Assembly (NCBI GenBank): GCA_963662175.1
Contig: OY759222.1
Coordinates: 10,674,222-10,738,221 of the forward strand
Source of the DNA: Aradus depressus
Lineage: Eukaryota; Arthropoda; Insecta; Hemiptera; Aradidae
Length of the DNA: 64,000 nt
Reading direction: 5' to 3'
Shown: piece by piece, positions 1 to 63,905 of the stretch
Layout of the letters: each line of letters begins with the position of its first letter
How positions within the stretch are numbered: position 1 is the first letter of the stretch
Translations under genes and position numbers: made by a program
The notes under the pieces: model-generated
Databases searched by the model: none
The model's input: the letters and a program-made list of their open reading frames with translations, nothing else
What the model was told of the DNA's origin: nothing

Positions 1-3000
1 TACAAACCCAAGCCACAAAAAGGAACTTGAGTCTTGAACAGACTGAAATTGCTGCTCAGCCAAACGTTGCTTGGCCACTTTCAGTTGGGACCGGAGGGCG
101 TCTGCCTCTTGCTGGGACAGAAGCAGGCGATCGCTCGTCTCCCACAGTTCACTGCTTAAATTTTCAATATGCAAACAGTCTTTTTTCACCTAAAAAAGAA
201 AAAGTGGTATCATTATTAAAACATAATATATTTATCACCGCACCACTTCTCCTATATATATATATATATATATATATTTTTATAGCAATTACAGACGTTT
301 CGGGAAGCAGTCCCTTCATTTGTAGTTTTAAACTTGGTGTGAATACAGAGGTCGACTCATTAAATATGTTCTATAAAAAGAAGATTCTGATTGTTAGAAG
401 GAATGTTAACATAAATTATAGACACTGATGATGGGAGTGCTTCCCGAAAAGTCTGTAATTGCTATTTATTTTTTTTAAACGAAGAAAATAAATGGGATAA
501 GTGATGTGATAAATATTCTATATATTAATTCAGAATCTCCTTACTCAGCCCAAAAGTAATTATCACAATGGGAATTAACATTTTTGCTGAAAATGAAAAT
601 TCAGACTTCGTAAAAATATTTCTTACAAAAATGGAGGATATCAATGCCTTAATTTTCCAAATGAGCCACTGAGAGATTAATGTATTTTTTAATATTCATC
701 TCTTATATTTATTTATATATCTCATATTATAGCGTGTTTGTCTACTGAGTCCAAGATCACAGGTTTGTGAGCCGTCCTTCGGATGATGATGGTCCCGAGC
801 CTGTTCGAAGTCAGTTGAAGACTCCCATTGTAGAGTCAGGTTCATGCCCACCTGAGCGACGAAAAAGCGCTCAGGTAGTTATGCGATATGAGCACGCAAT
901 CAAACCATAAGTCACAAAAACCAAACCAATCACCATCAATATTTTTAGTAAAATTATACAAACAACTATATAAAGGTCCTCATGAAATTTTCAACCATTT
1001 ATGTCTCCTCAACTCTGAGGTGGGTTCAATATGTAGGAACCTACATCGTTCAAAAAAATGTCAATGGAAATTTTGTTGCACATTCTTCAAGGACATACGG
1101 CTCGAATTCCACCTGACTAGGGTCAACCAAATTTGATATTTAACTCGTTTGCAAACATTTAATGTGCTATTTCAATTTTCATTGACGTTGGACCACTTAC
1201 ATAAAGGGTGTTATGATAATATCATAACCATAATACTGGGAATAACAAATATAATATAAGAATATTAATTTCGTTAATTATGCATGGAGAAAATTCAACG
1301 CTACATGTACAGTGGCTTTTTATGAATACTATTTCTCAATTTTTCAGAATAGAATTACCTTTCCTCTAAGCTGCTCAATTTTCTTTGTGTGTTCTTCAGC
1401 TACTTGGCTCAACTCTTCTTCAAATCGAGATTTCTAAGTAATAAGAACACAAGCATCGATTAAATAATGAAATATAATCTACAATAATTACATACTACAA
1501 CTCAGTAAATAGAATAGAAAACAATTTAGTTGTCAACCAGTATACCATATATCTTTTTCTCTCACAACTTATTGCATCATTTTCAACTCTGGGAGGGCAC
1601 ATAAGGGAACAGGTACACACGATATAGAATAAAAAACACTTATATCTTGATAAAGCGGCTAGTCAGCCTCCACTTCAGTCGTCGAGGGGGTCAGGCATTG
1701 TTGTCACTAGCGAATGCAGGTTTGTGTACATGCTGTATCATTTCGTGCAAGAATGGTAGTTGTGGTGAAGTGTTAAGACGTAATATGGACGTTGTGTGAT
1801 TGTTAGAAGGATTTTATTTTGAATGGCTTGAATTATTTTGTGAGAAGGCTTAGCAGAACCCCAGAGCTGAACACCATACATCCAGATAGGTCTGATCTGT
1901 TTCATAGACACATTTGTTAGTTATTGTGACTCATGTCCGGGGGGCTCTCAACTACGAGATCATATCGCCTACTATCAGAGTGCTCTTTCGTCGCTCTGAT
2001 GGACATGAGCCCAACTCTACTATGGGAGTCCTAAATTTGTATTCACCTAGGGTAAGGGTCTTAGGGGAGTATCTGACATCCTACAGACTCAGGATCCTTA
2101 ACGTCCCTTCCGAAGTACGCCGTGCTCAAGGTTTTTTACTACCCAGATAAAAAACCTAAGGGCCTCGGCCGAGTTTCGAACCCGCGATCTAGCGTCATGG
2201 CGAATTTTAGATAGCTTGTCTATTTGTAAATTCTTTTTTTGTAGTCTGCGCAACGTGTTTGTTGCAAATCAGTCGTCTGTGAAGGTGTAATTGTCTGTCA
2301 TGTTTCAGAGGGATATTATTGAGTCACACGGTTGTACAATCACCGTGCCTCAAGGCGAATGTAACATGAAGCGATTTGGTTTTTATATATTTCTACCTTA
2401 CACATACGGAGCCATCCCTCTAGAAGCTGTCCCTATGGAGATTTGGATGCGTAACTAGTCGATTTAGTAGCTAAGATTGCTATGTTATCGGCATAGGTAG
2501 TTAAGATAAGAGATGTTCGGATCCTGAATATGCTTGCAATATAGAGAAGCAAATCCAGACTTGGAGATGTTGGGATCCTGGATATGCTTGCAATATAGAG
2601 AAGCAGATCCAGACTTGGAGATGTTGGGATCCTGGATATGCTTGCAATATAGAGAAGCAAATCCAGACTTGGAGATGTTTGGATTCTGGATATGCTTGCA
2701 ATATAGAGAAGCAGATCCAGACTTGGAGATGTTGGGATCCTGGATATGCTTGCAATATACAGAAGCAAATCCAGACTTCCTTCTGTAGGATATCAGGTCC
2801 TATGGAATGAATGTCAGCCTTGTCTGACCTGGAAAAACCGATCATCCAAGTAAGAGCAGAGAAGCGATAATAACATGGGGATCGCATGGTCCAGTCCCAA
2901 ATGGCAGCCCAACATGCCAGACACGGTCGAAAGCTTCAACTATTGACATTACATTTCCATTCCAAAGCGGAGAAAATCTCACAAACTAATCGGTAATAAT

Positions 3001-6000
3001 ATCTGTTAATTAAATTATATTAAAGGAAGTTCTCTCAGTCCTCTACTCTTCTATCTCTACACACACAACACACTACATATGCAGACGACACAGACCCAAC
3101 ACAAGCAATCACACCTACAGGAACATTTACACCAGTTAACAGATTGGGCAAACAAATGGAGAATAAAAATTAATAGAGACAAATCTCTGCAAACCACATT
3201 CACTCTCAGACACAACACTTGCCTATCAGCTTACATTAACAATCAGCCCATTCCTGCATCCGACACTGTCCGATATCTAGGACTTCATTTAGACAGACGT
3301 TTAACTTGGACAACGCACAGACCTGCATATGGACGACTGAAATCAATCATCAGACGACGATCGACATTATCGCTTGAACACAAACTTCACATATACATTA
3401 CTATACTAAAACCCATCTGGATTTACGACATACAACTTCTTCAGTCAATACAATACATTATACTACGCCATATTGCCGATGCGCCATTTTACGTCAGGAC
3501 ACGGTATCAAAATTTTCACAACCAACTCCATCTTCAAGCCAATCAACTTATTCTGGAATTAGCCAAACACTCTCCCCACAAATACACCACGTCTCAAGCG
3601 GGCATGGCAGAGGGTCCTACAGGACTAGCCTGGACTCCTCTTCGGTCACGTACCTCAGGAGTACAGCCACACACTTGCCACTGCTCAACATCACTATTAC
3701 TATTGACAAATGTTATGTCGTTGTAAATATGCAAATAAATAAATAAAATAAATGATTAACAAATGAATAACTACAGAATAAATTAATGATAACTAAAGTT
3801 GACAAATATTTTATTGTACCATAACTGAGTTAAGGTTCAGTTACCAGTTTAGCATGTAATTGTAAAAGCCTTCCGTCAAAAGAGTTATTCATCTGATCTT
3901 CATTGTCTATTTGGTTCTCAACTGATCTCAAAATCTCTCTTTCTTCTTCAAGTTTTTTCTCTAAGTTAACCACATCCATTTTTAAAGCCTTGTTCTCGGC
4001 TATCATGCTGAAATAATAAATATACAGTATTAAAAAAATATATATAGAATATGAAGGCTCAAACTGCGAGAGCGGTTTCAATTTATCAATGTAAGTTTAC
4101 AAAATAATATATATACAACAATGTACCTGTCAGTTTTTTGTGTTTCTTCACACATGTTCTGTATTTTTTTATCGAGTATATTTTTCTCGTGTTCATACAA
4201 AGTCACATTCTGCTGTAGATTGTCTATTTCTAGTTGTTTTTCTTTCAATTTGCCACTTAATATTTTTACTTGATCCTCCAGCTGGGCAACCCTTCCGTTT
4301 CTTTCAGAGTTTTCTCTTTCGAAAGAGTCTAGTCTACCTAAAGAATCATTCAAACATTTACATTTATTATTATACTCAGTCTCGATATTCTTTAATTTTT
4401 CTTTGATTTCTGAGTTTTCTTTTCTCCATTTGTCGATAGCTCTGTGCCCTTTGGAAACTGCCAATTCCTCAAATTTGGCTGAATAATACTCAAGTTCTGT
4501 TGTTTTATCTCCAATTTCTCTTTTCAGCTGAGAAACAGTACAATTTAAATCTGTGACTCGTTGTTTACTTTCTACAATATCTTTATTTATACAATCAACG
4601 AAATCTATCAAATTTTGAAGTCCAGAGCTGCGTTGTAACACTTTTGAGTTGATTTTTGATTCAATTTTGTTAAACTTTTCTTGAAGTATTTCTCTAAATT
4701 CTTTCATTTCCATCTCCAAATTGACAACCTCTCTTTTCTTCACATTTAGCTGATGCTCAACTCGTTCTTTATTAAAATTAAGAGATTCCACTTTGGATTT
4801 GAGCAAACTAACAGACTTTTTACTAAACTGAAGTTCTTTTCTATTTTCTTTACTTCTTTCCGACAAAAAGGAAAGTCGATCGTGCAATTCTTTGTTCGAA
4901 GTCTCATTTTCCAACAATTCCGCCCGAAGATGGTCTATTTGTAGAGTCATGTCCTTGATAGTCAAATTCTTCCATTCCAGAGTTTCATTCAACTCTATCA
5001 ACTCTCGAGCTAGTTCATGCTGCGCCACACTACCCTGAGATAGTTTCTCCCTCCACTGACATGCAGACTGTATAAGTTTTTCATTTTTGAAATATTCCCC
5101 GTGGAGTTGCTCCTCAAAACGCGCCACTTCTTTGCTCTGTTGCTCTATCGTTGCTCTAAGTTGACATGTTCCTTTATCTTTTGATATTATCATTTTACTA
5201 TAATCATCTTCAAGTATTTTCAAATCATTTGTCTTATCTACTAAACATTTATTTAAAAATTCTAACTCGTCTTTTAAATCTTCCAAATTATTCTTTTTTT
5301 CGCATAGTTCACACTTGAGTGCAAGTATTTCTTCTTTGCGCTCTTCATCCTTTTGACTATATTCACTCATAATAACATTCATTTCCTTTTTAAGCTCCGC
5401 TATAAGTTCTTCACAGCCTTTTTTCGAAACTTCACAACTTTTTAAATCATTACATTTCGCATCTAAGCATTCCTTAAGTTTATCACATTCTATATTTCTT
5501 TCTTTGAGTTCCTCAGCACTCATCCTTACTTCAGTTTTAAGTATATCACAATTTTTACAAATATATTCTACTTTTGACAATTTTATTTGATCTTGTAGCT
5601 CTGCAATTAAACAATTGGATCTAAAATTTTCCTCCGTCAATCGTTTCAATTCCGATAGTCGTTCTTCCAATAGTTCTCCCTGTTGTCGAAGTTCCTCTTG
5701 TAATTCAGCACATTTCATATCGACAACAGACTCTAATGTTTCTGAATCTACAAATTGAAAACTTTCATCAAAACTCATTTTGCTTCTCTCAGATAAGATT
5801 GCGTTCTGTTCCTGGGGAGAAAAAGGAAATAATAATAATGAAAATCATTTTAATATGATAGAAATTAAAATAAAGATTTTCATAATGCATACCTCACAAG
5901 TACTCTTTAGCGACGACACCAATGCTTCAAGATCATCTACCTTCGAGGCAAGATTCGTATTTTTCATTTCAAATTCCATACATTTAGCTTCAACAATCCT

Positions 6001-9000
6001 TCTTTCAGAAACATAATTTTTATGCTTAAATAGGAAAAAAAAAATCATCAATTGCTAATGACTATAAGGATTAGGAGGCAGTATAGGAAAACAATTACCA
6101 TGTAAAAATGTAATGGATTTTTTTTAATGTGGTATGAAAATAGTCGTTTGAAGTAGAGTATGAGGGTAACGACATTCAAAGCCAATGATACAGGGTTCGA
6201 ATTCCGACGTGAACAGTAATGTAAACATATAATTTATATTCCTGCGAATGTTTAGAAAACCTGCAGATAGCCCACTGCTGATGCCAACAGTTGATGCGAA
6301 ATCCCCCCGAAAAAGTTAAAAGTTACGTCATAGAAAAATAAAAGACGTCTCCCACTGTTTTATTTTTGACCAGAACCGGTTTTCGTTCTAAGCAATGGCG
6401 TCATCATCAGTGGTACATCTATGATAAAATAAATATAATATACAAATAATGGAGAGTAATCTTAAAGCATCAGGGTACAGAGCAACAGAATAAAAACTTA
6501 CCTCACCCACACAGCGTAGCGGTTAAAGGATAACTGGCATAGCTCAAAGAGGTGGGGATAGCTAGGTTCACTCACTCTACGTACCCTGATGCTTTGAGAT
6601 TTATACTTTTCATAATTTGTATGTTACATTTATTGTATCATAGATGTACCACTGATGATAATGTTTTGTTGAAAACCGGTTCTGGTCAAAAATGAAACAA
6701 TGGAAAGACGTATAGTCGTATTTCTAGGAGAAATCTCGTCCCACCACTATTATCTTACTATCACATATAAAAATCTTTTTATATTTATAGTATATTGAAG
6801 TATTGTAATCGTGCGAAAATCCGAGGTCGAAGTTTCAACGGACTCTCACGTTTCAAGTTCCCCTCAATATGTTTTGACCATTTTCGCGATGATGTCTATG
6901 TGTTTGTTTATGTGAATGGAAAGTTGTGAGCGCTCTACCGCAAAAACGATTGTAGCTATGAACTTGAAATTTGGAATGAAAACATTTTCGAGTTAAGACT
7001 CCCCCCCTAATCCCCACTTTCCCTTTGATCGATTTGGCTAAAAATCAATAGGTGTCGTCCTTATGGGGTTCTGGATGCACATATAAAATTTCGTGTCATT
7101 TATTCTCTTAATGTCAATACATTTATTCTACCGGGAGTGTCATTGTCACACGATAGATACACAAACAAGCAGAAATTACATTTTTGGAATCAGGTCGGAA
7201 AACATGAAATTCCGGTGAAAAACCAACATCGAATTTCTGATCGATTACATAACTTCCCCAATACTTCGAATAGCTGGGGAAGTAAAATCTCATTTCTATG
7301 CGTTTTGAGGGAAGGTTTCCTTACAGAAACATGAATAATAATAAATATAATCTCACCTTTTCCAAAAGAGTTTTTTTCTCGTCATTAACATTATCTAAAT
7401 CTTCTTTTGAAATAATTAACGCAGTCTCTAATCTTTGAATTTCTTCTCTAAGTTTGACTATTTCGTTCTTCTCTTCACCCAACTCCAGACGCCGCATGTT
7501 ACTCAACGTATCCCCTCCGCCATTTTCTTCCAACACTTTCTCCCTTTCTTCCAAATTAGAATAAACTTGTGTTTTTAGACGAGCCAACTCAGTGGCTTTG
7601 GATTCCAATTTTTTAGCTGGAATCATAAAACAATTTGAATAATATTAATGGGATTATTAATTGTATTTAAAATTATTAATTGTAATAATACTGACATGTT
7701 TCTGTAAGAAGATGCTTGTTCAAATCCAATTCTTCTTGTAAGTGTTGCTTCTCACAGTTCAGGAGGTCTACCTTACTTCGAAGTGATCTTATTTCGGACA
7801 ATGTTAGACATCTTGGAGACTAAAAACAGGATTGTTATCATATTAAAAGAGCAATAACAAAAAAAAATATGAGTGGGAAGAAAGAATGAATTAAATAGCA
7901 TTTGTAAAGTAATGTCGGGCTATATTAGTTAGTTAATATGACTCATGCCCGGGCTCTACCTATAAGGTCATATCGCCTACTACCAGAGCGCTCTTTCGTC
8001 ACTCTGGTGGACATAAGCCCGACTCTACTATGGGAGTCCTAAATTTTGTCTATCTTGAGCTCAGTAAGCAAGCACGGATACCATTGAGCTACTACCGGCT
8101 CCCTCTTGTGTCGGGCTATGTTACTGTACATCGCCAATTTTAGAAATAGTGTCGCGGCCGTAAAAAAACAGGTGAATGTATGCCCCAGGTCGAAGGGCTG
8201 GCATACCGGGTCCTATGGTTAATGCTAGATAGTAGGTTGACTCTATAAAAATGATTTACAATATATAACCTATTTCACAAGATATATAAAATATATGGTA
8301 GCAATACCGAAAGTGCTCCCATCTTGTGAAATAGACAATATTTTTATTAAGTGGTTCATAATATCTCTGCAAAAATGTTAAGTATCAATAAATAACCCAT
8401 CTGAAATATTGTTACAATAATAATAAACAACCTGTAAATAGGGTTTTCCAGTAGGGGTTGTGTACGACCTAGGAGACGAGACAAAACTAGAGTTTCCCTC
8501 CTCATTTTCATCGTCTGAAAATATTGACAAAAAAATAACATGAATATTACAATAGTAATTGTAACTAAACTCAAGATAACGTACTTTTCAAGTTGTAAAA
8601 TAAAGACCAACCTGAAGCAACATCCAGTACAGCATCCATAACCAATTGTCTATTGACCAGATGGCGAGGAGTATAAACAAAACGTTCTATAAATGCCTGG
8701 ATCTTGAGCTGTAGGGAGGTATGGAGTCCGTAAAGAGGTGTTCGAAAGTCTTGCGACTCCAGGGAAGCCCACAGAAGGATAACGGAAGAGACAAGTGTGA
8801 CTTCATCGCTGTCCCAATAGCCAAGAAGTCGAAATCCAACAAATTCCGCTAGAAATAACAATATCAATGAAAAAATAAAATAATTTAAGCATTTCAATGG
8901 TGTAAAAAACGTTTAACGTAATAGAACCTTTAAGGAAGTTTTCAATAACTTTATAAATATCTTCATTTCCATTGGAGCTATTTTTAAAATAATCCTTGGA

Positions 9001-9654: not shown

Positions 9655-12600
9655 ATGGCTGCGCTTAAGTTTTGTGGATCTTGTATTTTATTTTTTATTT
9701 ATATTAATAATGTATATTGTGGTGTTCCAGTTTTAATTTGGGAATCTAGTGCTATCAGTGAAAAGGATGATGTCGTACCTGCTCTTACGCAATTGGATGT
9801 GGATGAATTTACGAACCATTTGGTAAAGAAGATTCATTCGCAAAAATCTCTTATTGTTTTGTTTTTGGAAGAAACTCTGAGCATTGAAGATTTTAGCTGG
9901 CTGGATAGTCATGGATTGTTTCCACAAGTTAAAAATATAACAAGTATGTCAGCTAAACGAGAATTTTTATCTTCTGTTGATGATCCTGTTGAGTCTTTAA
10001 AACAGTTAATAACTAGTCATGATTACGTGTGGAAAAAGTATAACGGACAGAAACTGCCTGAGATGGCTGGTGTCATATTGTCTGTTAATCTGAAAGATCC
10101 TCAAACCAATGATGCGCTTGCTACCCGGCCAGAATTACTCCGTCAACATGACGGGGACATTGCCGAAATATATAGTCAATTGTTATCAAAGCATAGCCGA
10201 ATAATGGCTATTTATACAGGGAAACAGAGTTCCTGGGTTGAATTTGAGAGTAATCGTGTGAAAAGAGATGCTGAGAGCGATAACTCAACTGGACCATGTA
10301 TTCGAGATACTCTTTTTAATGAACTATGTACTAGTTCTGCGCCAGTACTATCCGATGGCGTTCAGAATTTCACTTTAAGTGAAGCGCCAGAAGTTGTAAG
10401 TATATTTTCTCTGTAGTATCTTGTTACATCATAATTTTTCTTGTTGACAAATCATTTACTTTCGTATATTTTTCGTCCTGTTTTTTTTTAATTTATTTTT
10501 TATATTTCGGATAAGTAAGCTGGAGCCCTCATTTTTCTTATTTTTTTTATAATTTGCTTCTCGTGTAAGGTCACACACAGATTTATGTAAGTGCCACGCC
10601 CCTCTGCTTTATTTCAGATATACTTTTTTTAAATTAATACATCGCAGGATTTTTATTTTTTCAAATATCTGTATTTTTTCTAAGTAAGGTTGTTTATATA
10701 ATGATATATATTATGGCTCATCTGGAATGGTATTGTAATGAAACCATCAAGAACTCTTCCTAGGTTTCTTCTCTTTAAACCCTTCATTTATCAGTTCAGT
10801 GTTACTCATGGTACTACCTGGTATATATATATTTATTTATAATGCCATCGAGGGACAATTTTTTTACCCCCTTTTGCCCGCCGTATTGAATATACATTGG
10901 TACGATTGATACGGAACCCTAATAGACGGTAACACGTTACGAACAGTGAATTGTGATCGAATTAGGTTTATCCATATTTGAGTTATAAACAAATCTATGT
11001 ATAAAATTACAAACAGATCTCTTTTGAAAAGCAATATTTACTAAAAAGTTGTTCAAATTGATTCCAGATGCAAGACACTAGACCTACATTTAACCGAATG
11101 ATCCTTAAGTACACCACCGCTGCTGGCAAAGTTACCAAGATAGTCTTAAGACTTCGTTTTCAAGAAGAAAAAGGTATTTTTTATTTATTTATTTCTAATA
11201 ATTAGTTGTACGTTCAGAAATTGTGATCTGCCTCTTAAGAAATTTTCATATTTGTCCAAATGTGGCAACTTGCTACGTTTTCTTTTTCTTTGCTCCCAAA
11301 ATTCTCTCATTCGAGCACCCTCGTTTTCTACGATCATCACATATTCAAATCGCATCATCAGATATAGAATTATGATTTATTTTGTTTTTTTATTAAAATC
11401 CTTTGTATTTAAGGGTTGTGTAAGGAGATTCTGAATTGATGTATATTTATCTCGGCTCTCATTTCTCCAAATTATTTTTTGATTTTTAAAACCTAGCCAT
11501 TATAGACGTTTCGGGAAGCACTCCTATTATCAGCTTCTGAAAATATTTCATTATAATATTTTACATACAATCATCAAAAATAACTAAATTGATATCATTT
11601 TGTTTTGTCTATTTTATCTTAAGAATTATAGGGTCTCATTTTTTCAAGTATATTTAGATACGTCTTGAGAAATATTCTATTTACATTGTTGGTAGGTCGT
11701 TGGTCTTTGAGAGATATCGAGTATGAAGGAGACAACAACAAAGCTGTCATGTTGGATCCCTCCCAGGAGATTTCCGCCCCGGTTGGAACATCTTTCAAAG
11801 TGGACACTCCAGTTACATTTTCAAAAGGACCCGTCTCCCTCAAGTTTTCTGATCTTCAGGTAGTATATACTTATATTTAAACTTATGATTACCCCTGTCT
11901 AGTGAGATTAGACAGTTCAGTTATTATAAGCCCCACGTAGTTGCCATTAAGGAAAAGGCGATAGCCACTTTCAACGCCCTGAGCCGCGTAGCACGTGCGT
12001 AATGGGGCCTCGACTATTCCGCGTGTAGGATTATCTACACAGGGGTATTCGTGGCTGTAGCAAGGTATGGTGGCATCGCCCCACGAATCGGCAGCGCACG
12101 ATTCTGATGCAAGCCCAGAGAGCAGCCCTTTTAAAAGTTACAATGGCCTATCGAACTGTCTATAGCTGCGCTACAGGTACCATAGACTTGATCTTGGATG
12201 TGGCTGTCGCTTCATACTTCTGCTGCCGCAACATGGCCTTAGAAGCATTTATTGATGAGCCTTTATGCCTAGGTCTGGAGGAAGAGAGGCGCGCACAGTC
12301 CAGACCAGTACGCTGTAAGGACATTGTCCAGAATTGGATAGTGGGAAAATGGCAACAACGTTGGTGACGATGCTCGGATGGCCGAACGCATACTTCCCGG
12401 ACGTCCGGGTACATCTCTGCGTGGGTACGGCCTGATTATGTCCCAAATATTATCAGGTCATGGTGATTTAACCTCCAGGCTGTTCTTTCACTGGAAAAAC
12501 ACCCCGAACTGTTCGTGCGGTGGTATCGAGACTGCAGAACATGTGGTCCTCGAATGTCCGCTGTACGATCAAGCTAGGGTGGAGTTGATTCATGGGACAA

Positions 12601-14825: not shown

Positions 14826-15084
14826 TGAAGAACACTTCATGAAGCTCTCTAGATGGTTAGGCAACCAGCCTCCTCTCCACGGAGCACAGGATTGGGAGCT
14901 CGCTAAAGGGGACGTCACTGAAGCCAGAATTAAATAATAATAATATAGCGACCTCCAAAGGGATAGGAAAATCTGATCGTAATAACCAGTGGTCGTTATA
15001 ATCGATTTTTTTTTTGTTTTTCCCCCAATCGCAACAAATGAAAGGTCAAAACAACAATGGAATAAAGATATTTAACATTTTTGC

Positions 15085-15545
15085 AGAGAGATTGTGAAAC
15101 AATTAATAAATTATAAAGAAAACACGAATGTTTTTTAAATATTGTCTATTTCACAAGATATATAAAATATATGGGACTTTCGGTATCGCCGCTACCATCT
15201 TCAGCCACGACTTAACAAACACTCAGTTTTTGAACCCGCTCTAATCCCCTCTTTCTTTCTGCCGATTCCGCTGCAAATTAATAAGTGTCGTCCTTATGGG
15301 GTTTTGAAATTTTGTCGGCAGTTATTAGAGCTTTTTATGTTAAGCCTCTGCCCTAATCGCCCCTTACCTTTGGTCGATTTCCCTGAAAATCAATAGGTGC
15401 CCTCCTCAGAGGGTTCTGGATTTACATATAAAATTTCGTGTTGATATATTCTTATAAATACTCAGTATTTGTTAAGTCGTGGCTGAAGATGGTAGCAATA
15501 CCGAAAGTACTCCCATAAAAAATATTCGTGTTTTCTTTATAATGG
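15085..15545. repeat. Foldback of AGTACT hammerhead family, interrupted by modular repeat
   Basis: Left arm 15085-15225 and right arm 15450-15545 share, inverted, the blocks TTCACAAGATATATAAAATA, GGGAGTACTTTCGGTATTGC and CAGCCACGACTTAACAAA. A block of the modular repeat sits between them. Confidence 0.7.
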
Positions 15546-15973: not shown

Positions 15974-16373
15974 ATAAGTGTAGTCCTTATGGGGTTTTGA
16001 AATTTTGTCGGCAGTTATTAGAGCTTTTTATGTTAAGCCTCTGCCCTAATCGCCCCTTACCTTTGGTCGATTTCCCTGAAAATCAATAGGTGCCCTCCTC
16101 AGAGGGTTCTGGATTTACATATAAAATTTCGTGTTGATATATTCTTATAAATACTCAGTATTTGTTAAGTCGTGGCTGAAGATGGTAGCAATGCCGAAAG
16201 TACTCCCATAAAAAATATTCGTGTTTTCTTTATAATGGAATAAAGGTTTAAAAAACTCAATTTCTTAAAAACAATACATATTTATTTAAAAAATAGCACT
16301 TATTTACATTAAATAATTGGAAAAATGAGATGTTTTAATGTCTTCGTCTATGACAGCATAGTCGTTCAAATCT
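15974..16373. repeat. 400-bp direct duplication, copy 2
   Basis: Second copy of 15281-15680, 293 bp downstream in direct orientation. Its right border meets a T-rich stretch next to the pogo-like remnant. Confidence 0.9.
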
Positions 16374-17159: not shown

Positions 17160-18020
17160 TTAAGCAGAGATATTGTGAAACACTTAAAAAAATAAATAAA
17201 TAACGTATGTTTTTTAAGAATAATGTATATTTACCAGAATATATATACAATATATGGGAATGTCCGAATCCATTTTTTGCGTTCTGTGTTAATATAGTGG
17301 AAATACTAATAAATAAAATAAAATGATAGATAAAACACTTTTTTGAACACTTATATTTGTGGAATTAGACAATATAAGTGTTCAAAAAAGTGCTTTATCT
17401 ATCATTTTATTTTATACAATATATGGGAGTACTTGCGGTATTGTTTCCGTCGTCAGCCACGACTTAACAAACACTCAGTTACTAACTTAGTATCTAAGTC
17501 GTGGCTGAAGATGTTAGCAATGCCGAACGTACTCACATATATTGTATGTGTATATTTTGTAGACAATATTTTGTTTTTTCTTTATTTTTAACTTATTATG
17601 TTTTGGTATTCGGTTAAGGGATCTAGTTGGGTTTAATTTGAATTGAAACATCTGCAATGGTAGGTGTTACAACAATGAATTCTGATGGTGGAAGAGTGGG
17701 TCGGATAAAGCCTAATTTTGTCCAAAAATATATAAAGAAAACGTAACGTAAGTTTTTTAAAATATTGTCTTTTTCACAACATGTATATATATATATTTAT
17801 ATATAATATGGAAGTACTTTCGGTATTGCTACGATCTTCGGCCACGTGGCTGTACAGTACGTGATAATACAGTATTTGTTCAATCGTGCCAGAAAATGAT
17901 AGCAATATCGAAAGTACTTCCATATACTATGTATATTTTGTGATCTAAATAATATTTTCTTAATTGTTTACGAAGTGTTTCACAATATGTCTGAAGAAAA
18001 TGTTAGATATCACTAATTTT
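17160..18020. repeat. Two decayed AGTACT-family foldbacks with a nested short palindrome
   Basis: Copies at about 17160-17590 and 17735-18020 are bounded by ATATTGTGAAACACTT-type ends and have inverted arms with the GTACT...GGTATTG block. A separate 102-bp palindrome (17313-17414, arms about 46 bp) is inserted in the first. Confidence 0.6.
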
Positions 18021-36800: not shown

Positions 36801-39800
36801 GTGGTCATGTGCGAAACCCTTCAGTGTGTGACCTCATCACACTTCTCTGTAATATTTTTCCATGCTTTATGACGTCAAGAACGAAATAAGACAATTTAAG
36901 GAAAATGTGTGTATATAAGTTTTGCCCGTTGTTTCTTGCTTTACTTTAAATTGGCATTTAGGAAAGAAGGATTGACAACGATGTAATAGGAAAAAGGAGA
37001 GATCAGGCTTATGGTTGCTAAAATCAAAATTCTAGAATTTCCGCCAAGCTTTTGGCACTGAGTGTGCCTTCTTCAGGGTCTGTATTGACATTAAACATTA
37101 TTAGTGATTATTAAAGAGTAAAGATATGACAATAAAACTAAATGTGACTAGACCAACAAAATAACATTTAAATTATTTATACCAAATCAAAAACAAATAT
37201 AATATATCTAGAAAAGAAGCAACACCCTGAGCAAATAGAAGTTAATATTTTAAAACTTCTGTTCGTTCAGAATGTTGTTTTTATTTAGATATATTATATT
37301 ATTTGTTTTTGGTTTAATTTAATTCTTTTTTAAATTTTCACTCATTATATACGTTTTTATTTAGTTATAATTGTTTGTGTTTAGATATAATATTTTACTT
37401 GGTTTTGGTGTAAATATTTGAATGTTATTTTGTCGTTTAGTCACAGTTAGTTGTAGTGTTATATCTTTACTTAATTCTAGCATATATAAACTCACTGATA
37501 TATACGAAGGGTGATGTTGATATAATGTATTGTCATTGATATTAAACAAACGATGGGTGATCAAGAAGTTCCAGGACTTTTTGGATTGCGCGCCAACGGA
37601 GCGTCGGAGAGCGATACGGTTGGCAGCGTTAGTTGTTGTGACTCTTCCTGAGCTCAGCTGTTTTTGTAGATTCTCTACAACCTACTTTGTTGTGATGTAA
37701 CAGACGTTTTGTAAAACAAGTTTTTCGTGTTTTGCTATTTTGTCATCTTCTGTCAAATAAGTCAAAAAGAAGAGCAACGTATTTGTTCTAGGTTTTGTAT
37801 GAAGTAGGGTAAAACTTCTACAGAAATTTATCGGATGTTAAAGTGTATTTTGGGGATGAATACCTGAGTTGATCACGGTGTCATGAGTGGTAAGGAGGTT
37901 CAAAGAAGGCCGGACATCGTCAGAAGACAATCCTCGTTCAGGACGCCCATCAACTTCGACTGACGACGATCATGTTGCCAAAGTGAACATTCTCGTGCGA
38001 TCAAAACGTCGACTAACCATCCGTGAAACTCTGAGACATTTGCGCGAGGCTGTGAGGAGGAAGAAACCTGAGCTGTGGTGTAGTGGGGAGTGGGTGCTGC
38101 ACCATGACAATGCTACTGTTCATTCTGCGTTGCTCATTTGCGATTATTGCACAAAATACGCCATGTCCGTCTTCCCCCAGCCCCCGTACTCACCAGACCT
38201 GCCCCCTGCGGACTTTTTCTTGTTTCCGAAACTCAAGAGACACTTAAAAGGGCAGAGGTTTCACTCAACTGACGAAATTAAAGAAAAATCGGAAAAAAGG
38301 ATGAGCTGAACAGCATTCTAGAAGATGAGTTCTTAGGGTCCTTCCAGCAGTGGAAACGGCGGTGGGGAAAATGTACAGCTTCCCAAGGGGAGTACTTTGA
38401 AGGGGACAATAACTTCTAAATTTTTAAAATAAATTTAAAAAAATCAGTCATGGAACTTTTTGATCACCCCTCATATGTCAATACAAGCTCTGATGAAGGC
38501 GCGCGCACTCAGTGCCGACAGCTTGGCAGAAAGTCTACAAGTTTGTTTTTATCAACTACAAGCCTGATTTCTCCTTCCTATAAAATAATGGGTTGATTTC
38601 GATCAAATTTGATGTACTGTTTTGAGGTGTGAAACTACTGGGCCAGCAATTTTGAAGGTAGAACACTCAAACTGTTTGGAACTAGAGTTTAGCTTTATAA
38701 AGCTTTCAATTTTTGCAGTTCATCGTCAATTGAGGGGGGGGGGGGGGGGAGGTGGTTTTCATGCACTCTTGTTACTCCTGGCCTTGTTCATATCGAAATT
38801 AGGTTAGGTACACACGGGTACATACATTGAACACGTCAGTCCCTAACTAGCCTAACACAGTGCTGCGTCATATCTTAAATGTCTTCTATCTCGTCAAACG
38901 CTCATTACGAAAATTACGCTTGTAAATTTTTAGATTATTTTTTAAAATATTTTTTATTTAATTCATATTTTCCTTTTTTTATTTTTTTTCGCTTTGTGAG
39001 GGCAAGGGTTCTATCTGACTCAGAGATCATTTGAGATATTGAGGTTTGAAACTTGGCAATTCCGTAAAGCATGTGTTTTTGACTTAAGTTAAACATTTTT
39101 TTTCATCGTTAACTAATTCGGTTCCTACTGTATGTTGATGATACAAGTTTTTATTTCTGGATGCTTGTTTATATTATATATATATAATATAATATAAACA
39201 AGCGTCCAGAAATAAAAACTTGTATAAGTATATATGTATATATATATATATTATACTATCTGTAACGATCATAAAAATGTTTTATTGCCCAAACCTAAAC
39301 ATTCCAAAATATCCACCAACACGATAAATTGACTTTTTTCCATTTAAATAATGTATAAAAAAAGTAGTGTTTCGTTTTGGAGAATATTCAATTCCCCCCA
39401 AGCCACTTAAAGTTTATGAAATTCTTCTACATTAAGCCAGGGTTTGACGCAGAGAGGACCTTTTGTTCTGAAAGCCACTATTTAATTGATATATTTTAAA
39501 AGTTTATTATTATTTTGGTCTAGCAAAAAACCCCATGGCTGGCTATACAACCGCTTTCAAAATACCGAGAACGACATATAAGGTATATTTTCTTTATTCT
39601 TTTAAGCTGCGTGTTTTTTCTTTGTCTACAAGAAAGTTGAAGGGCGGGCAATATGTATTTCCAGAAAAATATCTGAAAGTAATAAAATAAAAAAATGCTT
39701 TTGAAAGTATATTGTAAATTATTTATTTATTTGCATTTTTAGTACAATTTATATATTTATTATTAATTTTTTTTTTTTTTCGGGTGTTTTTTCTTTCTTT

Positions 39801-44140: not shown

Positions 44141-44271
44141 TAAATTATATTTTTATTTAATTCGTTTTAGTGCTTTATTTAAAACATTGAAATCCTTTCG
44201 AAACAAACCTTTACAATACATATATTTTTTAAATCGTCTTTTTGGTTTTTAATAACTTATTTTTTTGAAAT

Positions 44272-44954
44272 AGATAATTAAAATACACAATTTCTTTGTC
44301 AAACTTCACTATATATTCTCAAATACTCAACTAGTTTCGCCGTGTTAAGGCATTATCAAGAGTCACTTACAAACTGACAGAATTGGTTGACAGGGTAGAA
44401 GATACAGTTATGGAGGGGTTTTTTAGGTAATGACGGGGAATCCCTTGTTTTTGTTACTCTATACATTCCAATAAACAGATATTTACAAGATAATAATAAA
44501 TATAAAAATAAAAAAGAAAAAAAAAAAATATATATATATATAAAATCTAATAAAGCGAATCTAACAGTAAAGTGTTGGTATTTATATAGGTATGACTCAT
44601 GAATTATATAAATGTAAAATATAATAAATATTAAAGTGAATAAAAACAAATACATAGAATTTAAAGACAAATTAAAACATCAAATGAAAAATATAGTATA
44701 TTTTTCTTTCTTTTTTATTTTTATATTTATTACTATCTTGTAAATATCTGTTTATTGGAATGTATAGAGTAACAAAAACAAGGGATTCCCCGTCATTACC
44801 TAAAAACCCCCTCCATAACTGTACCTTCTACCCTGTCAACCAATTCTGTCAGTTTGTAAGTGACTCTTGATAATGCCTTAACACGGTGAAACTAGTTGAG
44901 TATTTGAGAATATATAGTGAAGTTTGACAAAGAAATTGTGTATTTTAATTATCT
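44272..44954. repeat. Near-perfect 683-bp palindrome with ACTAGT-type hammerhead-like cores
   Basis: The two arms, about 250 bp each, are nearly identical in inverted orientation, centred near 44613 with an AT-rich spacer. The core on each arm (plus strand 44862-44900) is TTGATAA (two changes from CTGANGA), stem II GCC/GG(C), GAA and self-complementary ACTAGT, then T. Stem I is ACTC/GAGT. The ORF on the minus strand here is an artefact. Confidence 0.7.
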
Positions 44955-47008
44955 ATTCCTAGAATGGAGCTTCACAAAGTAAATCTGGAAACCATAAATT
45001 ATTATTTTTTAGAATTTGGCAAAGCTAGCGTCGGTTGTTTTGTTTTTTCTCCAAAAGTAAAAATAATATTCGAAATGTTGGTCTATAAATGTTTTTACAT
45101 TTTATGAGTACCACCTAAGTACCACTTTCATTTTCTGGCCACAATTTATTTATTTTTTTTGCTGTTGGTAAAAGTGCATAAATTATAAAAATCCGCTCTA
45201 ATTGTTTGTGGCTTTGAAAGTTGGATTATAATCCAAAACTCTTGAAAACCGTAATACTTTGGTACCAAAATGTTTTCTGTGAATGAACTCAGTTTTCTTT
45301 CATCCCTTTTTGTTAATTGAATCCATTGTGAGTGTTAACCTAAAAAAAGTATTCAATTTTTTGCATTTTCTCAAGAATGTTATATTTTGATTATTGGCAG
45401 TAGAAATAACGTGTTTACTGTCGAAGTTGACCATTTCATTGCCATATACATAACATAAAAACACTGAATGAACAAATTTTGTTATTTTTTCTATATATAT
45501 TTTTAACAGATATTACTTAATGTTTCATACAGATAATCTAATTTTCGGGCTCAATTTATCAGTGTCTTTTAATTGATGTAAATGTCTTCGGTAACCCTAA
45601 GAAATTTTAGGGATTATATAGTATTTTTTCTTTTTAGAAAAAAAAAAAAAAATATCTATTTATTAAAAATTGTTAGTTACCATCAATGTTAAGAGATATT
45701 ATTTTTATGGATTAGTTAAATAGATTTTTTTTTTTTGCTACCTTTGACAATTTGTCTGCTTTTATGTAATTTAAATAGGCAATCAAGCATGTTATAAATC
45801 AAATTGTCATGGTGGCTGGTGGTTTCAAAATCTAGTTTTATATTTTTTAAAATAGTATTAGATTGGATTTTATTAATGGATGTAAATGTTTGTATATATT
45901 TCTATGTATTATGTAGTTATTCTAGTTAATAATTGTTATGTAAAGTAAGCGACATGCTTTCATCGCTTTTGGGATGACACAATTCTATCTGATTTAGAAA
46001 AGCCATTTTGAGATATTAAGATTTGAAACATTGCATTTACATGAAAAATTGTTTTTAATAAGTTTGATTTTTTTTTTTTACAACTAATACGTCCCTCGAT
46101 TCCTATGTTTCGAAATTAATTACTTTTAATTAAAAACTGCCAATAATAAAACCATATATGAATTTTAAAATATATTTAAAAATTAGTTGCCATATCCATA
46201 TATTACAATTTAAACGACTATATTCCGTACAGAAATTTATTCTACGTTCTTTGGAGCGCTTTTTATCTCTGGTTCATATTGGTCCTATCTAAACTGAAGG
46301 CATATTAACTGTTGGAAATTTAATAAGGAACAGTTTAGGTAAGAACAAATTGTTCGATCGGAATAACTGTTTTCGCATAAAGCAAGCAAACATCTAAAAA
46401 AATAGTTTCAAAACATTTTAGGATGAATTAACAAATACTATTTTATTACCTGCAAACTTGTTCTAAAAATATCTATCAGGGTCAACGCTTTCTTATAAAC
46501 AATAAATTCACATTTTTTCTATTGTATTAAAAAAGATAATTTCTAGGCGAATACACCACAACCCAAAATTTCTTTTATTATTTTGGTTGTGCTTAATCTG
46601 GCTGACATTAGGCTTCGTATCGACTGTAGGACTTGAGTCCGGTTATGTGAAATGATTGGCCAACATTTTCACTGACGATAGAAACGTCTTATTATATATA
46701 AAAGTCTTATATCCATCAATATTTACGAAAATACAGATAGAACCTTTCATCCCAAGACGACATTTTTTAGGCTTATTTCAGTGGGCTGAATTTGTTTTTT
46801 TTTATTAGTTAACTTTATATATTTTTTTCTTTGTTTATATTTTACCATTCACAATTAATGTATATATGATAATTGTAAATAATAAGTGTAATTCATTTGC
46901 ACATAAGTGCCTTAATCCATTACTGAAGCTTTTTTATTTTATTTTTTAGCTTTAACATAAGTTTTTTTTTTTTCTGAGCTGAAAATACTATTGTGAATTG
47001 TATAGACC

Positions 47009-48060: not shown

Positions 48061-48396
48061 CAATTACTAAGATAGGTTTAGTTCACCATCACACCACCAG
48101 AATCATCAGCTATTGGGACCCAATTAACTTTTAATAATTCTGTTCTTTTTTTATTGATTATCCTTTGAAAATATTTTTGCCCCTCAAACTAGATAATTAA
48201 CTGAACGGTTTTTGGAAGCAAGTTTTCCCGGAATATGTTCTACCCAACTTAACCCTAAACATTTTTTTTTCTTATTTGTTTTCTGTTTTACCTAACATAT
48301 TTTCCCTACTGATTTTTCGTTACTTCTGGGTATCCCTTTTTAACTTAGTGCAAAATTTCAGTTATATAGTTTCCAAGGTAAGGTAGAGTTAAGTTT

Positions 48397-48685
48397 ATTA
48401 AAATATATAAAGAAAAACGACTGTTTTTAAAAAAATATTGTCTATCCTACAAGATATATAAAATAAATGGGAGTACTTTCGGTATTGCTATCATCTTCAG
48501 CCACGATTTAACAAATACTAAAAAAAAAAAATGCATTTAGTATTTGTTAAGTCGTGGCTGAAGTTGGTAGCAATACCGAAAGTACTCCCATATATTTTAT
48601 ATATCTTGTGAAATAAGCAATATTTAAAAAAATCATTTATATTTTTTATTAAGTGTTTCACAATATCTCTGCGAAAAATGTTGAG
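48397..48685. repeat. Best-preserved AGTACT-family foldback
   Basis: Arms meet at an A-rich spacer near 48525; the left arm has CTGAAGA (minus, 48500-48494) and the right CTGAAGT (plus, 48558). Ends carry the TCACAAGATATATAAAATA and AAGTGTTTCACAATATCTCTGC modules found beside the GIY-YIG relic at 18.7 kb. Confidence 0.75.
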
Positions 48686-48704
48686 TATCATTAAGTTTAT
48701 TAGT

Positions 48705-57200: not shown

Positions 57201-60200
57201 AAAGAATCTAGGAGTAGATTGTTCTGAGATTGAAGCCATGTTTTTCTGAAAAATCAAAACAAAGTACTGGAAAGATACGAGCGGGCGCAATTCATCTCAC
57301 AGATTGTATAGGAAATAACGATGAATATCATTGAATTAGGGGCTGGAACATAGATATACGAACTATTGCAGGTATATAAAAAGAAATATTGAAAACAATT
57401 TTGTAATTTCGGAAATCCAAAATACTTACCAAATCGGGCTCAACACATCCAACAGATTAAAATGTCCCTGACAGAGACCAACGGTACACTGGAGAAATAA
57501 CAAAGATAGCATTGTTTGATGGGTGGGGAGTCAGGAAGCTACTACTTTGTCGGTAAACCTTGTCCATTGGCACAAAAAAAACTAGGTACGTACAGGGGCG
57601 TAGCCAGGATTTTGAGCAGGGGGGCGGGGCGGGGGGGGGGGGGGGGGCAAAGTTAGGCTACGAGGGTGGGGGGTATAGACTCCCGGGGGCACAGCACGTA
57701 GTTTCCGGGGTTAGCTTTGCAAACTTTTTGTTATTAATTTGGGAGACTCGGACCTCTAGAAGCTCCCCCTGAGGTAACCACTGACTGTAATACTTAAGTT
57801 GACTTTACATGAGCAGCAAAAATGCAAAGCGCAGCAGCAGCAAATGCACGCTGTGGTTTCTGTGCTTTTAGAATTAAATGACTCACAGCCAATAGCGTGT
57901 ATTTGCTGCTGCTGCGCTTTGCATTTTTACTGCGCATGTAAAATCAGCTTTAAGAGTATAACATAAATGACGATTTTGAGCGAGGAAATGAAATGATCGA
58001 ATTCATGTATATTTAAATAGAATCTATTTAAATTATTACATAAATGTACATGTACAAAACAAGTCATATTACATCTGATGTAATATGACTTGTTTTGTAC
58101 ATCTACATTTATGTAACAGCTGATTGCTGATTTAGGAATAAGACGCACGGGAAATTTGAAGATCCTATTGCAAGCAATCCATTTTTAATAAGAATTTTTT
58201 TAGTTTATTTAATTTATATCTTGGTTTTTTGTTCTGCCCAGGGGGGGAGGGGGGGGGGAGGGGCACGCTCATCTAATAGATTATTATATCTAATTCATCT
58301 AATAGATTAGAAGTAATGTAAAGTAAGAAAGTAATGTTTTCAAGACAGATAGTAAAATGAGTAACGAGAGCGGTCAGGCGCGATCCCAAGTTCAAAGACA
58401 AACATTTGAATTTAGAAAGAAACTATACTTAAGTTGAATATTGTCTCAGGTTTACAATAAACAGCGGTACATAGACATGGCTCTTCAATGCGGTGACGTG
58501 GTTTGGGAACGAGGTCTTCTGACCAAGGGATACTCAATATGTCATGGAGTCTGCGGAAATGCATATGCATTCCTTGAACTGTTCAAAGCAACTAAAGTAA
58601 GTATGACGTCTAATTTGAAAAACTAAAATAACTAAATTTAAAAAAATTTTGTTTTTTGAAATATTTTCTAAATATGTTTTCTATTGAACTTTAATTACTG
58701 TGCACAACTGTTTGCTATTATGCATTTAATTTTCATCGATTAGTTTATCTTGTTAGTATTTAATTTTTTTTTTTTAATGTATAAACGTCATTTCACATAT
58801 AAATTAGTTTTTCTTAGTATTATTTAGACAGAAAAAACAAATTCCTAACTGTACAGCCACAGTGGATTTCCTAGTTGAAATGCCTACCATCTTCCTTACC
58901 TGAAATATAAGATTGGTTGGCACTCAGCAAACTAACTTAGTTTATAACTAAACTTGACAATGGTGTAATACCGAAACCGGTATTATATGTATATTATTTC
59001 TTAAGATGAATATTGACTTTAAAATATACCTGTTTATTCGTCAGGATTTAAGACATCTCCATAGAGCAGCCTGCTTCGCGGAGTGGTGCACTTACTACCC
59101 CAGAGATGAGGGAATGAAACCGGATCGTCCTTATTCTTTGTTTGAAGGTACTTTTATTGATAGTACAAATTAAGAAAAAAATTAGTAACTTACCTTCAAT
59201 TAATGTTCGAGTCTTAAAGGTTTTAGGTATGGTAACAGTTCAGATACCAGTTGTTATTATGACTCATGCCCGGGCTTTAACCATAAGCTCATACGCCCTA
59301 CTAATGGGTTCCTGACATATTACAGGCTAGGGACCATCGCTTCTGAAGGATAGCGTGCTCAAGGGTTTTTCATCTGGGATACATCAACTCGAAAACCCCA
59401 ATAATTGCCGATGAAATGAATATATCGACATGAAATTTCATATTTAAATACTAAACACCATAAGGATGGCATCTATTTATTTTCAGCGAAATCAGCCGAA
59501 GGGATGACATGGGCTCAACTCAAAAACTCCAATAACTGCCGATGTAATTAATTTATCGACATAAAATTTAGTATGAGGATTCAGAAATCCCTATGTAAGT
59601 CAACTGCTGGTTTGTAGCTCAAACGGTCGGCTGGTTTTGGAGGTAGAGCGAGAAGTTATTTGATTAAAGCGTTCTGGGGAAGTACATTGCTAGTGATTTA
59701 CCGATTTTTTTTTTATAAGTGTATAAACTTTTCCACACTTATTAAATAAATAATTTGATGTTATTAAAAGCGCTCTGCCCATTTTCATCTTCTCCGCGTA
59801 AAACGAGCAAACGTTGGGTTTCTTCAAGGAAAATCGGACAAAAATTGAATCTACTTTCCTTCGGGGCCTAAGTACACTTTACAAGATACGCTATATATAT
59901 ACGCTTATATTTATGATCTAATTAAAAGTTGTAGATAAAACTGAAAGGTACATTTTATATGAAATACTAATTACTTTCAAAGTTCAAGTTCTTTGCTACA
60001 ATCGTTCTTGGGTTAGAGCGCTCAGAAAGTTCCAAACACACAGACAAACATCATTGCAAAAATGGTAAAAACGTGTACAGGGGACCTTGAAACGTGAAAT
60101 TCCGTTGGAATCTCGATAACGGATTTTCGCACGATTACAATACATATACTAGAGGTGAAAAAAGAAAATGAAATGCAAGTGTTTAGCTTGAATGTAGAAA

Positions 60201-63709: not shown

Positions 63710-63905
63710 AAAAGGAAGTAAATATTTCTGAACAAACAAATTCTTAACTGTTAAGTCACAGGTAGTTGAAACCCTCACCCTTACCTACCTGATTTACTTA
63801 TAAAAACGGTTCGTACTCAGCTAAATTGTCTGAGTTTATTATTAAACCTGACGATGGAGTAATACCGAAACCGATAGTTTTGGTAAAAATGTTTTTTTTA
63901 TAGTA
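63710..63905 (+). repeat. ACCGGT-type hammerhead repeat, copy 2
   Basis: Second copy of the family at 58801-58992. CTGACGA at 63848-63854 is a perfect core. Stem II is GG..CC, then GAA, ACCGAT (one change from ACCGGT) and A. Stem I is AAAC/GTTT. Confidence 0.6.

What the first reader, a model, noticed from the sequence alone, without database searches (positions are those of the whole stretch)
190..63905. Six unrelated inverted-repeat families share a hammerhead-ribozyme core with a different self-complementary stem III in each
Seen: six families carry CTGANGA or near variants, a short stem II, then GAA and a self-complementary segment: ACGT (283-475, 11.5 kb, 32.6 kb), AACCGGTT (6.4/6.65 kb), AGTACT (15.2-18.0, 48.5 kb), ACCGGT (58.95, 63.85 kb), AGCT (37.05/38.5 kb) and ACTAGT (44.3/44.9 kb). 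In each the next base is an allowed H17 (C, C, C, A, T, T). In five families the flanking bases can pair as stem I (ACA/TGT, ACCA/TGGT, GTGG/CCAT, AAAC/GTTT, ACTC/GAGT); the AGCT family is weak. Known: minimal type I hammerheads with tiny stem III act as dimers in Penelope-like elements and animal retrozymes. Inference: the changing palindromic stem III is compensatory covariation, and the window holds a diverse set of such elements.
Basis: partly seen in the sequence, partly recalled or inferred. Interest (0 to 1): 0.88.

Follow-up and report, generated by a model that had tools for sequence, protein, structure and literature searches.

The report
Paired ribozyme repeats in bug genome
Six families of repeats in this stretch of DNA, likely from a true bug, carry the hammerhead self-cutting RNA core, eroded in many copies, with stems that differ from family to family yet mostly still pair; five families lie as outward-facing mirror pairs, they are likely insertions of Penelope-type jumping elements, and their RNA copies would pair up two by two to cut, which might also explain why such elements land as mirror pairs.

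Summary
The motif is real. A graded descriptor (core, stem II, GAA, palindromic stem III, H17, stem I) puts arms of the six claimed families in the first 14 places of the window, each score expected at most 0.47 times in dinucleotide shuffles. In 20 readable, unrepaired arms, stems I, II and III pair better within families than after swapping 3' strands between families (P = 1/720, 1/720, 12/720). A15.1 is kept in 19 of 20, U16.1 and non-G H17 in 20 of 20. Five of six families (not ACCGGT) form inverted repeats with motifs facing outward. Six of ten such insertions show 8-13 bp flanking duplications; F3 and F6 have one arm longer by a tail of about 37-44 nt. This matches the published anatomy of Penelope inserts (PMC3846280). 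Best reading: ORF-less Penelope-type insertions with minimal type I hammerheads that would work as dimers. Against: no Rfam hammerhead match, no Penelope ORF found, only 5 of 20 arms intact in core, GAA and palindrome together, activity untested, genome not searchable. New, as far as seen: six families in 64 kb with covarying palindromic stem III, a likely U3-A8 core, non-recurring head-to-head junctions, and a testable link between RNA dimers and mirror-image insertion.

The parts
421..457 (+). F1a hammerhead motif, right arm (stem I ACA/TGT, core CTGATGA, stem II GGGA/TCCC, GAA, AAGT for ACGT, C17)
290..326 (-). F1b hammerhead motif, left arm (core decayed to CAAATGA; GAA ACGT C TGT intact)
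11501..11537 (-). F1c, single arm (CTGATAA, GAA ACGT C)
32828..32864 (+). F1d, right arm at 32.8 kb (CTGATGG, GAA ACAT A); left arm near 32602-32640 (-) has lost the core
6648..6686 (+). F2a motif, right arm (ACCA/TGGT, CTGATGA, GAA AACCGGTT C)
6369..6414 (-). F2b motif, left arm (stem II weak)
6349..6703 (.). F2 head-to-head insertion, flanked by AAAGACGT at 6341-6348 and 6704-6711
15479..15516 (+). F3a motif (GTGG/CCAT, CTGAAGA, GGTA GCAA TACC, GAA AGTACT C), intact
15068..15540 (-). F3 head-to-head insertion, long arm left, flanked by AATGGAATAAAG at 15056-15067 and 15541-15552
16172..16209 (+). F3b motif, in a local duplication of the segment around 15.3-15.6 kb
17423..17460 (-). F3f motif, left arm of the 17.45 kb pair
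17501..17538 (+). F3c motif, right arm of the 17.45 kb pair
17808..17845 (-). F3e motif, left arm of the 17.85 kb pair
17886..17923 (+). F3d motif, right arm of the 17.85 kb pair
17723..18012 (+). F3 head-to-head insertion, long arm right, flanked by CTAATTTTGTC at 17712-17722 and 18013-18023
48467..48504 (-). F3h motif, left arm
48554..48591 (+). F3g motif, right arm
48401..48690 (+). F3 head-to-head insertion, flanked by TTAAGTTTATTA at 48389-48400 and 48691-48702
8271..8385 (+). F3 miniature: left arm is tail complement up to CCAT, right arm from stem II on; joined at a shared ATGG that falls at the predicted cleavage site; flanks CAATATATAACC / CAATAAATAACC
58950..58986 (+). F4a motif (TTGACAA, GAA ACCGGT A; stem I broken)
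63844..63880 (+). F4b motif (CTGACGA, GAA ACCGAT A; stem I AAAC/GTTT)
37042..37080 (-). F5a motif, left arm (GAA reads AAA)
38486..38528 (+). F5b motif, right arm (GAA reads GAC)
44863..44901 (+). F6a motif, right arm (ACTC/GAGT, TTGATAA, GCC/GGT, GAA ACTAGT T)
44325..44363 (-). F6b motif, left arm (TTGATAA, GCC/GGC)
44270..45001 (+). F6 head-to-head insertion; arms end at 44964, then a 37-nt tail 44965-45001; flanks TTATTTTTTTGAA 44257-44269 and TTATTTTTTAGAA 45002-45014

Best explanation
These repeats are likely ORF-less insertions of Penelope-like retroelements, most of them two arms joined head to head, in which each arm carries a minimal type I hammerhead motif with a self-complementary stem III, eroded in many copies, so that two RNA copies are predicted to pair through stem III and stem I and cut as a dimer. 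Shown: the motif, its excess over chance, the covariation between families, the outward head-to-head layout of five families, flanking duplications of varying length (8-13 bp) at 6 of 10 head-to-head insertions, and a tail on one arm (F3, F6). Inferred, for F3: the RNA starts about 19 nt before the core, since 7 of 8 paired arms begin at AGTRT and the sequence before it is less alike, so the ribozyme would lie at the 5' end of the transcript. Inferred for all: a Penelope-type protein from another locus makes a staggered break and reverse-transcribes one RNA from each broken end, and the two cDNAs are joined, giving head-to-head arms with a different filler each time. Untested: that the RNAs cleave, that the dimer forms in the cell, and that the dimer is what brings the two templates together.
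For: Descriptor excess. Cross-family swap test on 20 unrepaired arms: stem I 15.50 of 18 against mean 7.28, stem II 15.75 of 18 against 11.21, stem III 10.88 of 12 against 8.10. A15.1 19/20, U16.1 20/20, H17 not G 20/20. The minimum-energy dimer contains all pairs of the double hammerhead for 5 of 20 arms: F3a, F3b, F6a, F6b, and F3d, which has no stem I pairs to contribute. Duplications AATGGAATAAAG, TTAAGTTTATTA and CTAATTTTGTC exact, CAATAWATAACC 11/12, TTATTTTTTWGAA 12/13, AAAGACGT 8/8. F3 arm start shared by 7 of 8 paired arms; centres of 13, 19, 24 and 240 nt share at most 6 bases in a row. PMC3846280 (passages and Discussion read): Penelope inserts with inverted pLTRs, head-to-head, optional 31-bp tail on one, 8-10 bp duplications. 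PMC11167929 (main text read): a Penelope-like protein cuts and extends both strands, two RT start sites explain the tail, and the ORF starts inside its hammerhead, after C3 and G8; here 11 of 20 arms read ATG from A9 on.
Against: No Rfam hammerhead model at the gathering score, at E<=10 on the window, or locally at three sites. No Penelope-type RT or GIY-YIG ORF recognised: a motif scan of 625 stop-free stretches of 40+ aa gave 8 loose matches, none that I could read as GIY-YIG, one of them in the weak RVT_1 ORF at 3010-3726, which I take for a LINE by recall; 10 ORFs were scanned with Pfam. So the Penelope link rests on anatomy, not homology. Four of ten head-to-head insertions gave no convincing duplication (F1 at 0.28 and 32.6 kb, F3 at 17.45 kb, F5). 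Without anchoring, the F2, F6 and 8.3 kb duplications are unremarkable between random flanks (P 0.18, 0.13, 0.09; 17.85 kb 0.02, 15 kb 0.005), and the anchored test used boundaries set where the repeats had been found. 15 of 20 arms do not have the double hammerhead as minimum-energy dimer, all F1, F2, F4 and F5 arms among them. F3 arm starts were located by searching for that start, and two columns before it are 6 of 7 alike. Arms of one insertion are hardly more alike (mean 0.846, n=4) than arms of different insertions (0.821, n=24). My descriptors were written after seeing these families (extra base, palindrome, TTGANAA bonus). In PMC11167929 the ribozyme cut only when protein was added, cleavage was not needed for insertion, and no RNA reads began or ended at the cut site.
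Confidence: 0.72

Rival explanations
1. Terminal inverted repeats of cut-and-paste DNA transposons (MITEs) in which CTGANGAT...GAA is a conserved transposase-binding site and the palindrome part of it.
For: Long inverted repeats, no ORF recognised in them apart from the nested mariner of F5, several copies.
Against: Duplication lengths vary (8, 11, 12, 12, 12, 13 bp), one arm carries an extra tail in F3 and F6, F3 centres do not recur, and the variable parts covary as three RNA stems, which a DNA site does not require.
Confidence: 0.1
2. Animal retrozymes or ordinary type I hammerhead satellites that spread as circular RNA.
For: Type I core, weak stem III, AT-rich short elements; PMC7229834 (passages) describes an axolotl stem III of one pair capped by a palindromic tetraloop. 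One direct pair of F3 motifs exists (15503, 16196).
Against: No tandem array was seen in the window; the direct pair lies in a duplication of a larger segment, and nine pairs plus the 8.3 kb miniature are head-to-head, where a transcript carries one sense motif and cannot release a unit-length circle.
Confidence: 0.07
3. Head-to-head arms arise by self-priming (snap-back) of one cDNA or antisense RNA, as proposed for Adineta Penelope elements, and the RNA dimer plays no part. (This competes with the two-template step only, not with the hammerhead or Penelope reading.)
For: Published proposal (PMC3846280 Discussion). Arms of one locus share some private variants by eye (AGTACTT in both 17.8/17.9 arms, ATTGTAT in both 17.4/17.5 arms).
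Against: Three of the four F3 centres were compared with the unit: best 8-base match 6 to 7 of 8, so they do not look like loops made of element sequence, as simple snap-back would give; the fourth (240 nt) was not compared with the unit.
Confidence: 0.45
4. Chance: the reader collected CTGANGA matches and palindromes from AT-rich repeats.
For: Palindromes of 4 follow 8.5 percent of all GAA in the window (227 of 2677); only 5 of 20 arms keep core, GAA and palindrome together.
Against:: excess over shuffles and swap test.
Confidence: 0.03

Closest known systems
Minimal type I hammerheads of Penelope-like elements (Cervera and De la Pena 2014; Lunse et al. 2017, titled '... cleave RNA as dimers'; both not held, known here by citation and by passages of PMC7761336 and PMC6155905)
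   Same: Core, minimal or missing stem III, predicted dimer action, dispersed in non-coding DNA; start codon inside the hammerhead in PMC11167929, ATG from A9 in 11 of 20 arms here
   Different: Here pairs face outward in inverted repeats without a recognised ORF; stem III is a 4-8 nt palindrome that changes between families; F6 (both arms) has T3/A8 in place of C3/G8. Whether the 2014 and 2017 papers show such cases I could not check
Inverted-pLTR inserts of Penelope in Adineta vaga (PMC3846280)
   Same: Head-to-head inverted terminal units, tail on one side, short duplications (8-10 bp there, 8-13 here)
   Different: The inserts described in the passages read enclose an ORF, part of one, or captured DNA; here only the two arms and a filler are present; the word hammerhead does not occur in that paper's main text
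Axolotl satellite-type hammerheads (PMC7229834, passages)
   Same: Stem III of one pair capped by a palindromic tetraloop, efficient as dimer
   Different: Tandem repeats of 330-350 bp, not inverted pairs
Rfam hammerhead families
   Same: Core consensus (recalled)
   Different: No match at the thresholds tried

Membership tests
Hammerhead ribozyme, type I, minimal | CUGANGA core and GAA at hammerhead spacing | tested here: met
   Exact core in 11 and GAA in 17 of 20 arms; 3 arms pass the strict descriptor with all stems; top 14 of a graded search all in these families
Hammerhead ribozyme, type I, minimal | Stems I, II and III pair, with covariation | tested here: met
   Swap test on 20 arms, P 1/720, 1/720, 12/720
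Hammerhead ribozyme, type I, minimal | A15.1-U16.1 and H17 not G | tested here: met
   19/20, 20/20, 20/20
Hammerhead ribozyme, type I, minimal | Match to a curated covariance model | tested here: not met
   Rfam 15; these models expect a closed stem III (recalled)
Hammerhead ribozyme, type I, minimal | Self-cleavage 3' of H17 | not testable with these tools
   Needs RNA; one junction at 8.3 kb ends at the predicted site but shares ATGG with its partner
Penelope-like element (PLE) | RT plus GIY-YIG ORF, or homology to the pLTR of such an element | tested here: inconclusive
Penelope-like element (PLE) | Head-to-head inverted terminal units with optional tail | tested here: met
   F3 and F6; F1, F2 and F5 show head-to-head arms without a clear tail; F4 is not paired here
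Penelope-like element (PLE) | Short duplications of variable length | tested here: met
   6 of 10 head-to-head insertions, 8-13 bp (caveats in evidence against)
Animal retrozyme | Head-to-tail tandem units with type I hammerheads, circular RNA | tested here: not met
   No tandem array seen in the window; circular RNA not testable
MITE / DNA transposon | Fixed-length target duplication | tested here: not met
   8, 11, 12, 12, 12, 13 bp

The most novel reading that the evidence does not exclude
The hammerhead of Penelope-type elements serves first as a dimerisation device: the palindromic stem III locks two transcripts into a double hammerhead, the element's protein reverse-transcribes one transcript from each end of a staggered break, and the two cDNAs are joined head to head. 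Ribozyme symmetry in RNA is thereby written into the genome as mirror-image insertions, and stem III is free to drift to any palindrome because only self-complementarity matters. Cores may even drift to a U3-A8 pair (F6).
Probability: 0.2. Interest if true: 0.85.

Novelty: new variant of a known kind. Interest (0 to 1): 0.55.

Why it matters
The role of hammerheads in Penelope-like elements is called a mystery in a review (PMC7761336, passages), and in one purified system cleavage is not needed for insertion (PMC11167929). The origin of head-to-head inserts is also open (PMC3846280). Families in which a palindromic stem III, head-to-head arms and non-recurring junctions occur together link the two questions and make the link testable with short RNAs. 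Rfam's models gave no match to the window's motifs, so such elements are probably undercounted.

Tried and rejected
Rfam scans for a curated hammerhead match: none; many of the miRNA-like matches are simply hairpins of inverted repeats. First descriptor gave 5 hits, all at one core mismatch and none in the six families, because it required stem II to start right after A9. A MAFFT alignment of 15 arms (A1) misaligned F2, F5 and F6, so no covariance model was built. IMG/VR scans: a general pattern gave 4 matches, in contigs of 56-67 percent GC and with poor stem I by eye, which I take for chance without having tested it; an F3 pattern gave 0. F5 as mariner end repeats: rejected, the mariner is nested inside the F5 arms. 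Promoter reading of the F3 arm start (TCAGT, TTAGT or TGAGT by eye): kept only as an inference, and not general, since arms of F1, F2 and F6 run on further inward. Self-priming against two-template origin: not decided by arm identities. Duplications for F1, F5 and the 17.45 kb pair: not found or unclear. Four arms or remnants were left out of the 20-arm counts: 15.2 kb left arm (stem II insertion, damaged palindrome), 17.27 kb fragment, 32.6 kb left arm (core lost) and the 8.3 kb miniature.

Full report
What was checked. The window (64,000 bases, 27-43 percent GC in 2-kb steps) is animal DNA: an ORF at 9649-10416 is 63 percent identical to a V-type ATPase subunit S1-like protein of Halyomorpha halys, and the other named matches are from Panstrongylus, Rhodnius, Rhynocoris and Cimex, so the host is likely a true bug.

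Is it more than chance. A strict descriptor gives 3, 5 and 9 hits at 0, 1 and 2 core mismatches against shuffle means of 0.01, 0.065 and 0.86 (200 shuffles); 3, 4 and 6 of these lie in the claimed families. A graded descriptor, run over both strands, puts 14 arms of the six families in the first 14 places, with at most 0.47 expected at that score (40 shuffles). Of the 20 readable arms, 14 are in that set, 4 more are listed at E between 1.4 and 17 (58973, 17525, 32853, 11512), and 2 (301, 17910) are not among the 45 shown. The descriptors were written after seeing the families, so the fairer test is the next one.

Covariation. For 20 arms read as they stand, pairing was counted inside each family and after exchanging the 3' strands between families, over all 720 permutations. 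Stem I: 15.50 of 18 against 7.28. Stem II: 15.75 of 18 against 11.21. Stem III, outer two pairs: 10.88 of 12 against 8.10. P is 1/720, 1/720 and 12/720. The palindromes begin with A in 19 of 20 arms and end with T in 20 of 20, the A15.1-U16.1 pair of hammerheads (numbering recalled), and the next base is never G. Erosion is heavy: exact core in 11, GAA in 17, perfect palindrome in 16, all three in 5 of 20. All arms are read with one extra base between A9 and stem II, T in 16 of 20, and 11 of 20 read ATG from A9. In PMC11167929 (main text read) the ORF of a Penelope-like element starts within its hammerhead, after C3 and G8.

The core itself. F6, whose arms are 96 percent complementary over 274 nt and so likely the youngest, has TTGATAA in both arms; F4a has TTGACAA while F4b has CTGACGA. 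Read as hammerheads, C3-G8 has become U3-A8, which keeps the pair. In PMC11167929 C3G/G8C partly restores activity lost by either change. Against this, G8 alone is changed in F1c (CTGATAA), in F3d G8 and U4 are changed, so decay also hits G8, and F4a has lost stem I.

Anatomy. In F1 (two loci), F2, F3 (four loci), F5 and F6 the motifs lie in inverted repeats and point outward. F3 is the clearest. Seven of its eight paired arms (17.8 kb left arm excepted) begin at AGTRT, 19 nt before the core; in the first five positions the columns are 5 to 7 of 7 alike, before it 3 to 6 of 7 (the arms were located by this start, so the comparison leans towards it). The centres between arms are 13, 19, 24 and 240 nt and share at most 6 bases in a row with each other. 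Downstream, one arm runs on, 44 nt in the 15.2 kb arm, to a shared end near AAGTATCA, where the other stops near TTTCTTTAT. F6 has the same asymmetry, a 37-nt tail on the right. Flanking duplications: 12/12, 12/12, 11/11 and 11/12 for F3 loci, 12/13 for F6, 8/8 for F2. Random anchored pairs reach these scores in 10 to 40 of 6000 trials each, but boundaries were set where the repeats had been found; between random unanchored flanks the values are 0.005 (15 kb), 0.02 (17.85 kb), 0.09 (8.3 kb), 0.13 (F6) and 0.18 (F2) (the 48 kb pair was found). F1 (two), F5 and the 17.45 kb F3 pair gave none that convinces. F4 is not an inverted repeat here.

What it is. Duplications of varying length, a recurring 3' end, an optional tail and head-to-head arms are the anatomy reported for Penelope inserts in Adineta vaga (PMC3846280, passages and Discussion read), and minimal type I hammerheads are known from Penelope elements (PMC7761336 and PMC6155905, passages). 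I therefore read the repeats as ORF-less Penelope-type insertions. Homology to a Penelope ORF could not be tested: none was recognised in the window (the one RT fragment scanned, at 3010-3726, looks like a LINE by recall), and the genome search did not complete.

How it would work. A 4-nt palindrome cannot close on itself, a 6-nt one could form one pair and an 8-nt one two (geometry, not computed), but two RNAs can share it; each active site then uses core and GAA of one strand and H17 of the other. ViennaRNA's minimum-energy dimer contains all pairs of this double hammerhead for F3a, F3b, F3d (no stem I), F6a and F6b, 5 of 20 arms; the other 15 prefer other pairings. In a head-to-head insertion a transcript carries one sense motif, so the partner must be another molecule. 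PMC11167929 reports that a Penelope-like protein cuts and extends both strands. Put together, two RNAs, one per broken end, would yield head-to-head arms with variable filler. That paper also cautions: its ribozyme cut only with protein present, cleavage was dispensable for insertion, and no RNA reads began or ended at the cut. The published rival for head-to-head arms is self-priming (PMC3846280). Fillers that do not look like element sequence (three of four compared) speak against simple snap-back; private variants shared by the two arms of one locus fit either one source locus or snap-back; arm identities do not decide (0.846 within, n=4; 0.821 between, n=24).

A possible trace of cleavage. 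The 8.3 kb miniature has a left arm that ends at CCAT, the first bases after the predicted cut, joined to stem II of the right arm through a shared ATGG. It is what joining of a cDNA of the 3' cleavage product would give, but the shared four bases allow chance, and it is one case.

Novelty. In the held library, the listings of searches showed no paper on ORF-less head-to-head hammerhead elements; the key papers of 2014 and 2017 are not held, so this is a weak statement. The ribozyme kind and the insert kind are known; the combination, the palindrome drift between families in one 64-kb window and the U3-A8 core are, as far as I could see, new variants.

Noticed in passing
window 37556-38469 (ends by eye): A decayed mariner-type transposon (DDE_3 match below Pfam's cut-off, GGGTGATCAA...TTGATCACCC ends) lies inside the F5 inverted repeat, next to its right arm.
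   Followed up: partly
window 8271-8385: 115-bp miniature of family F3 whose head-to-head junction falls at the predicted hammerhead cleavage site, through a shared ATGG.
   Followed up: partly
window 35596-36811: A 1.2-kb nearly perfect inverted repeat (383-nt arms 96 percent, then 114-nt arms 94 percent complementary) with no hammerhead-like motif among the 45 best hits.
   Followed up: no
window 17300-17420: A small inverted repeat (by eye) interrupts the left arm of the F3 pair at 17.45 kb.
   Followed up: no
window about 15270-15660 and 15969-16380: A local duplication of several hundred bases (by eye) that includes F3a/F3b and part of the centre of the 15.3 kb F3 insertion.
   Followed up: partly
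window 56390-56831 and 59383-59589: Adjacent similar units repeated in inverted orientation about 2.6-2.9 kb away (74-84 percent complementary).
   Followed up: no
window 58820-58930 and 63720-63830: The two F4 copies look similar upstream of the motif as well, by eye for about 130 bases (BLAST match 58907-58991 with 63800-63885), so F4 may have a longer 5' part.
   Followed up: partly
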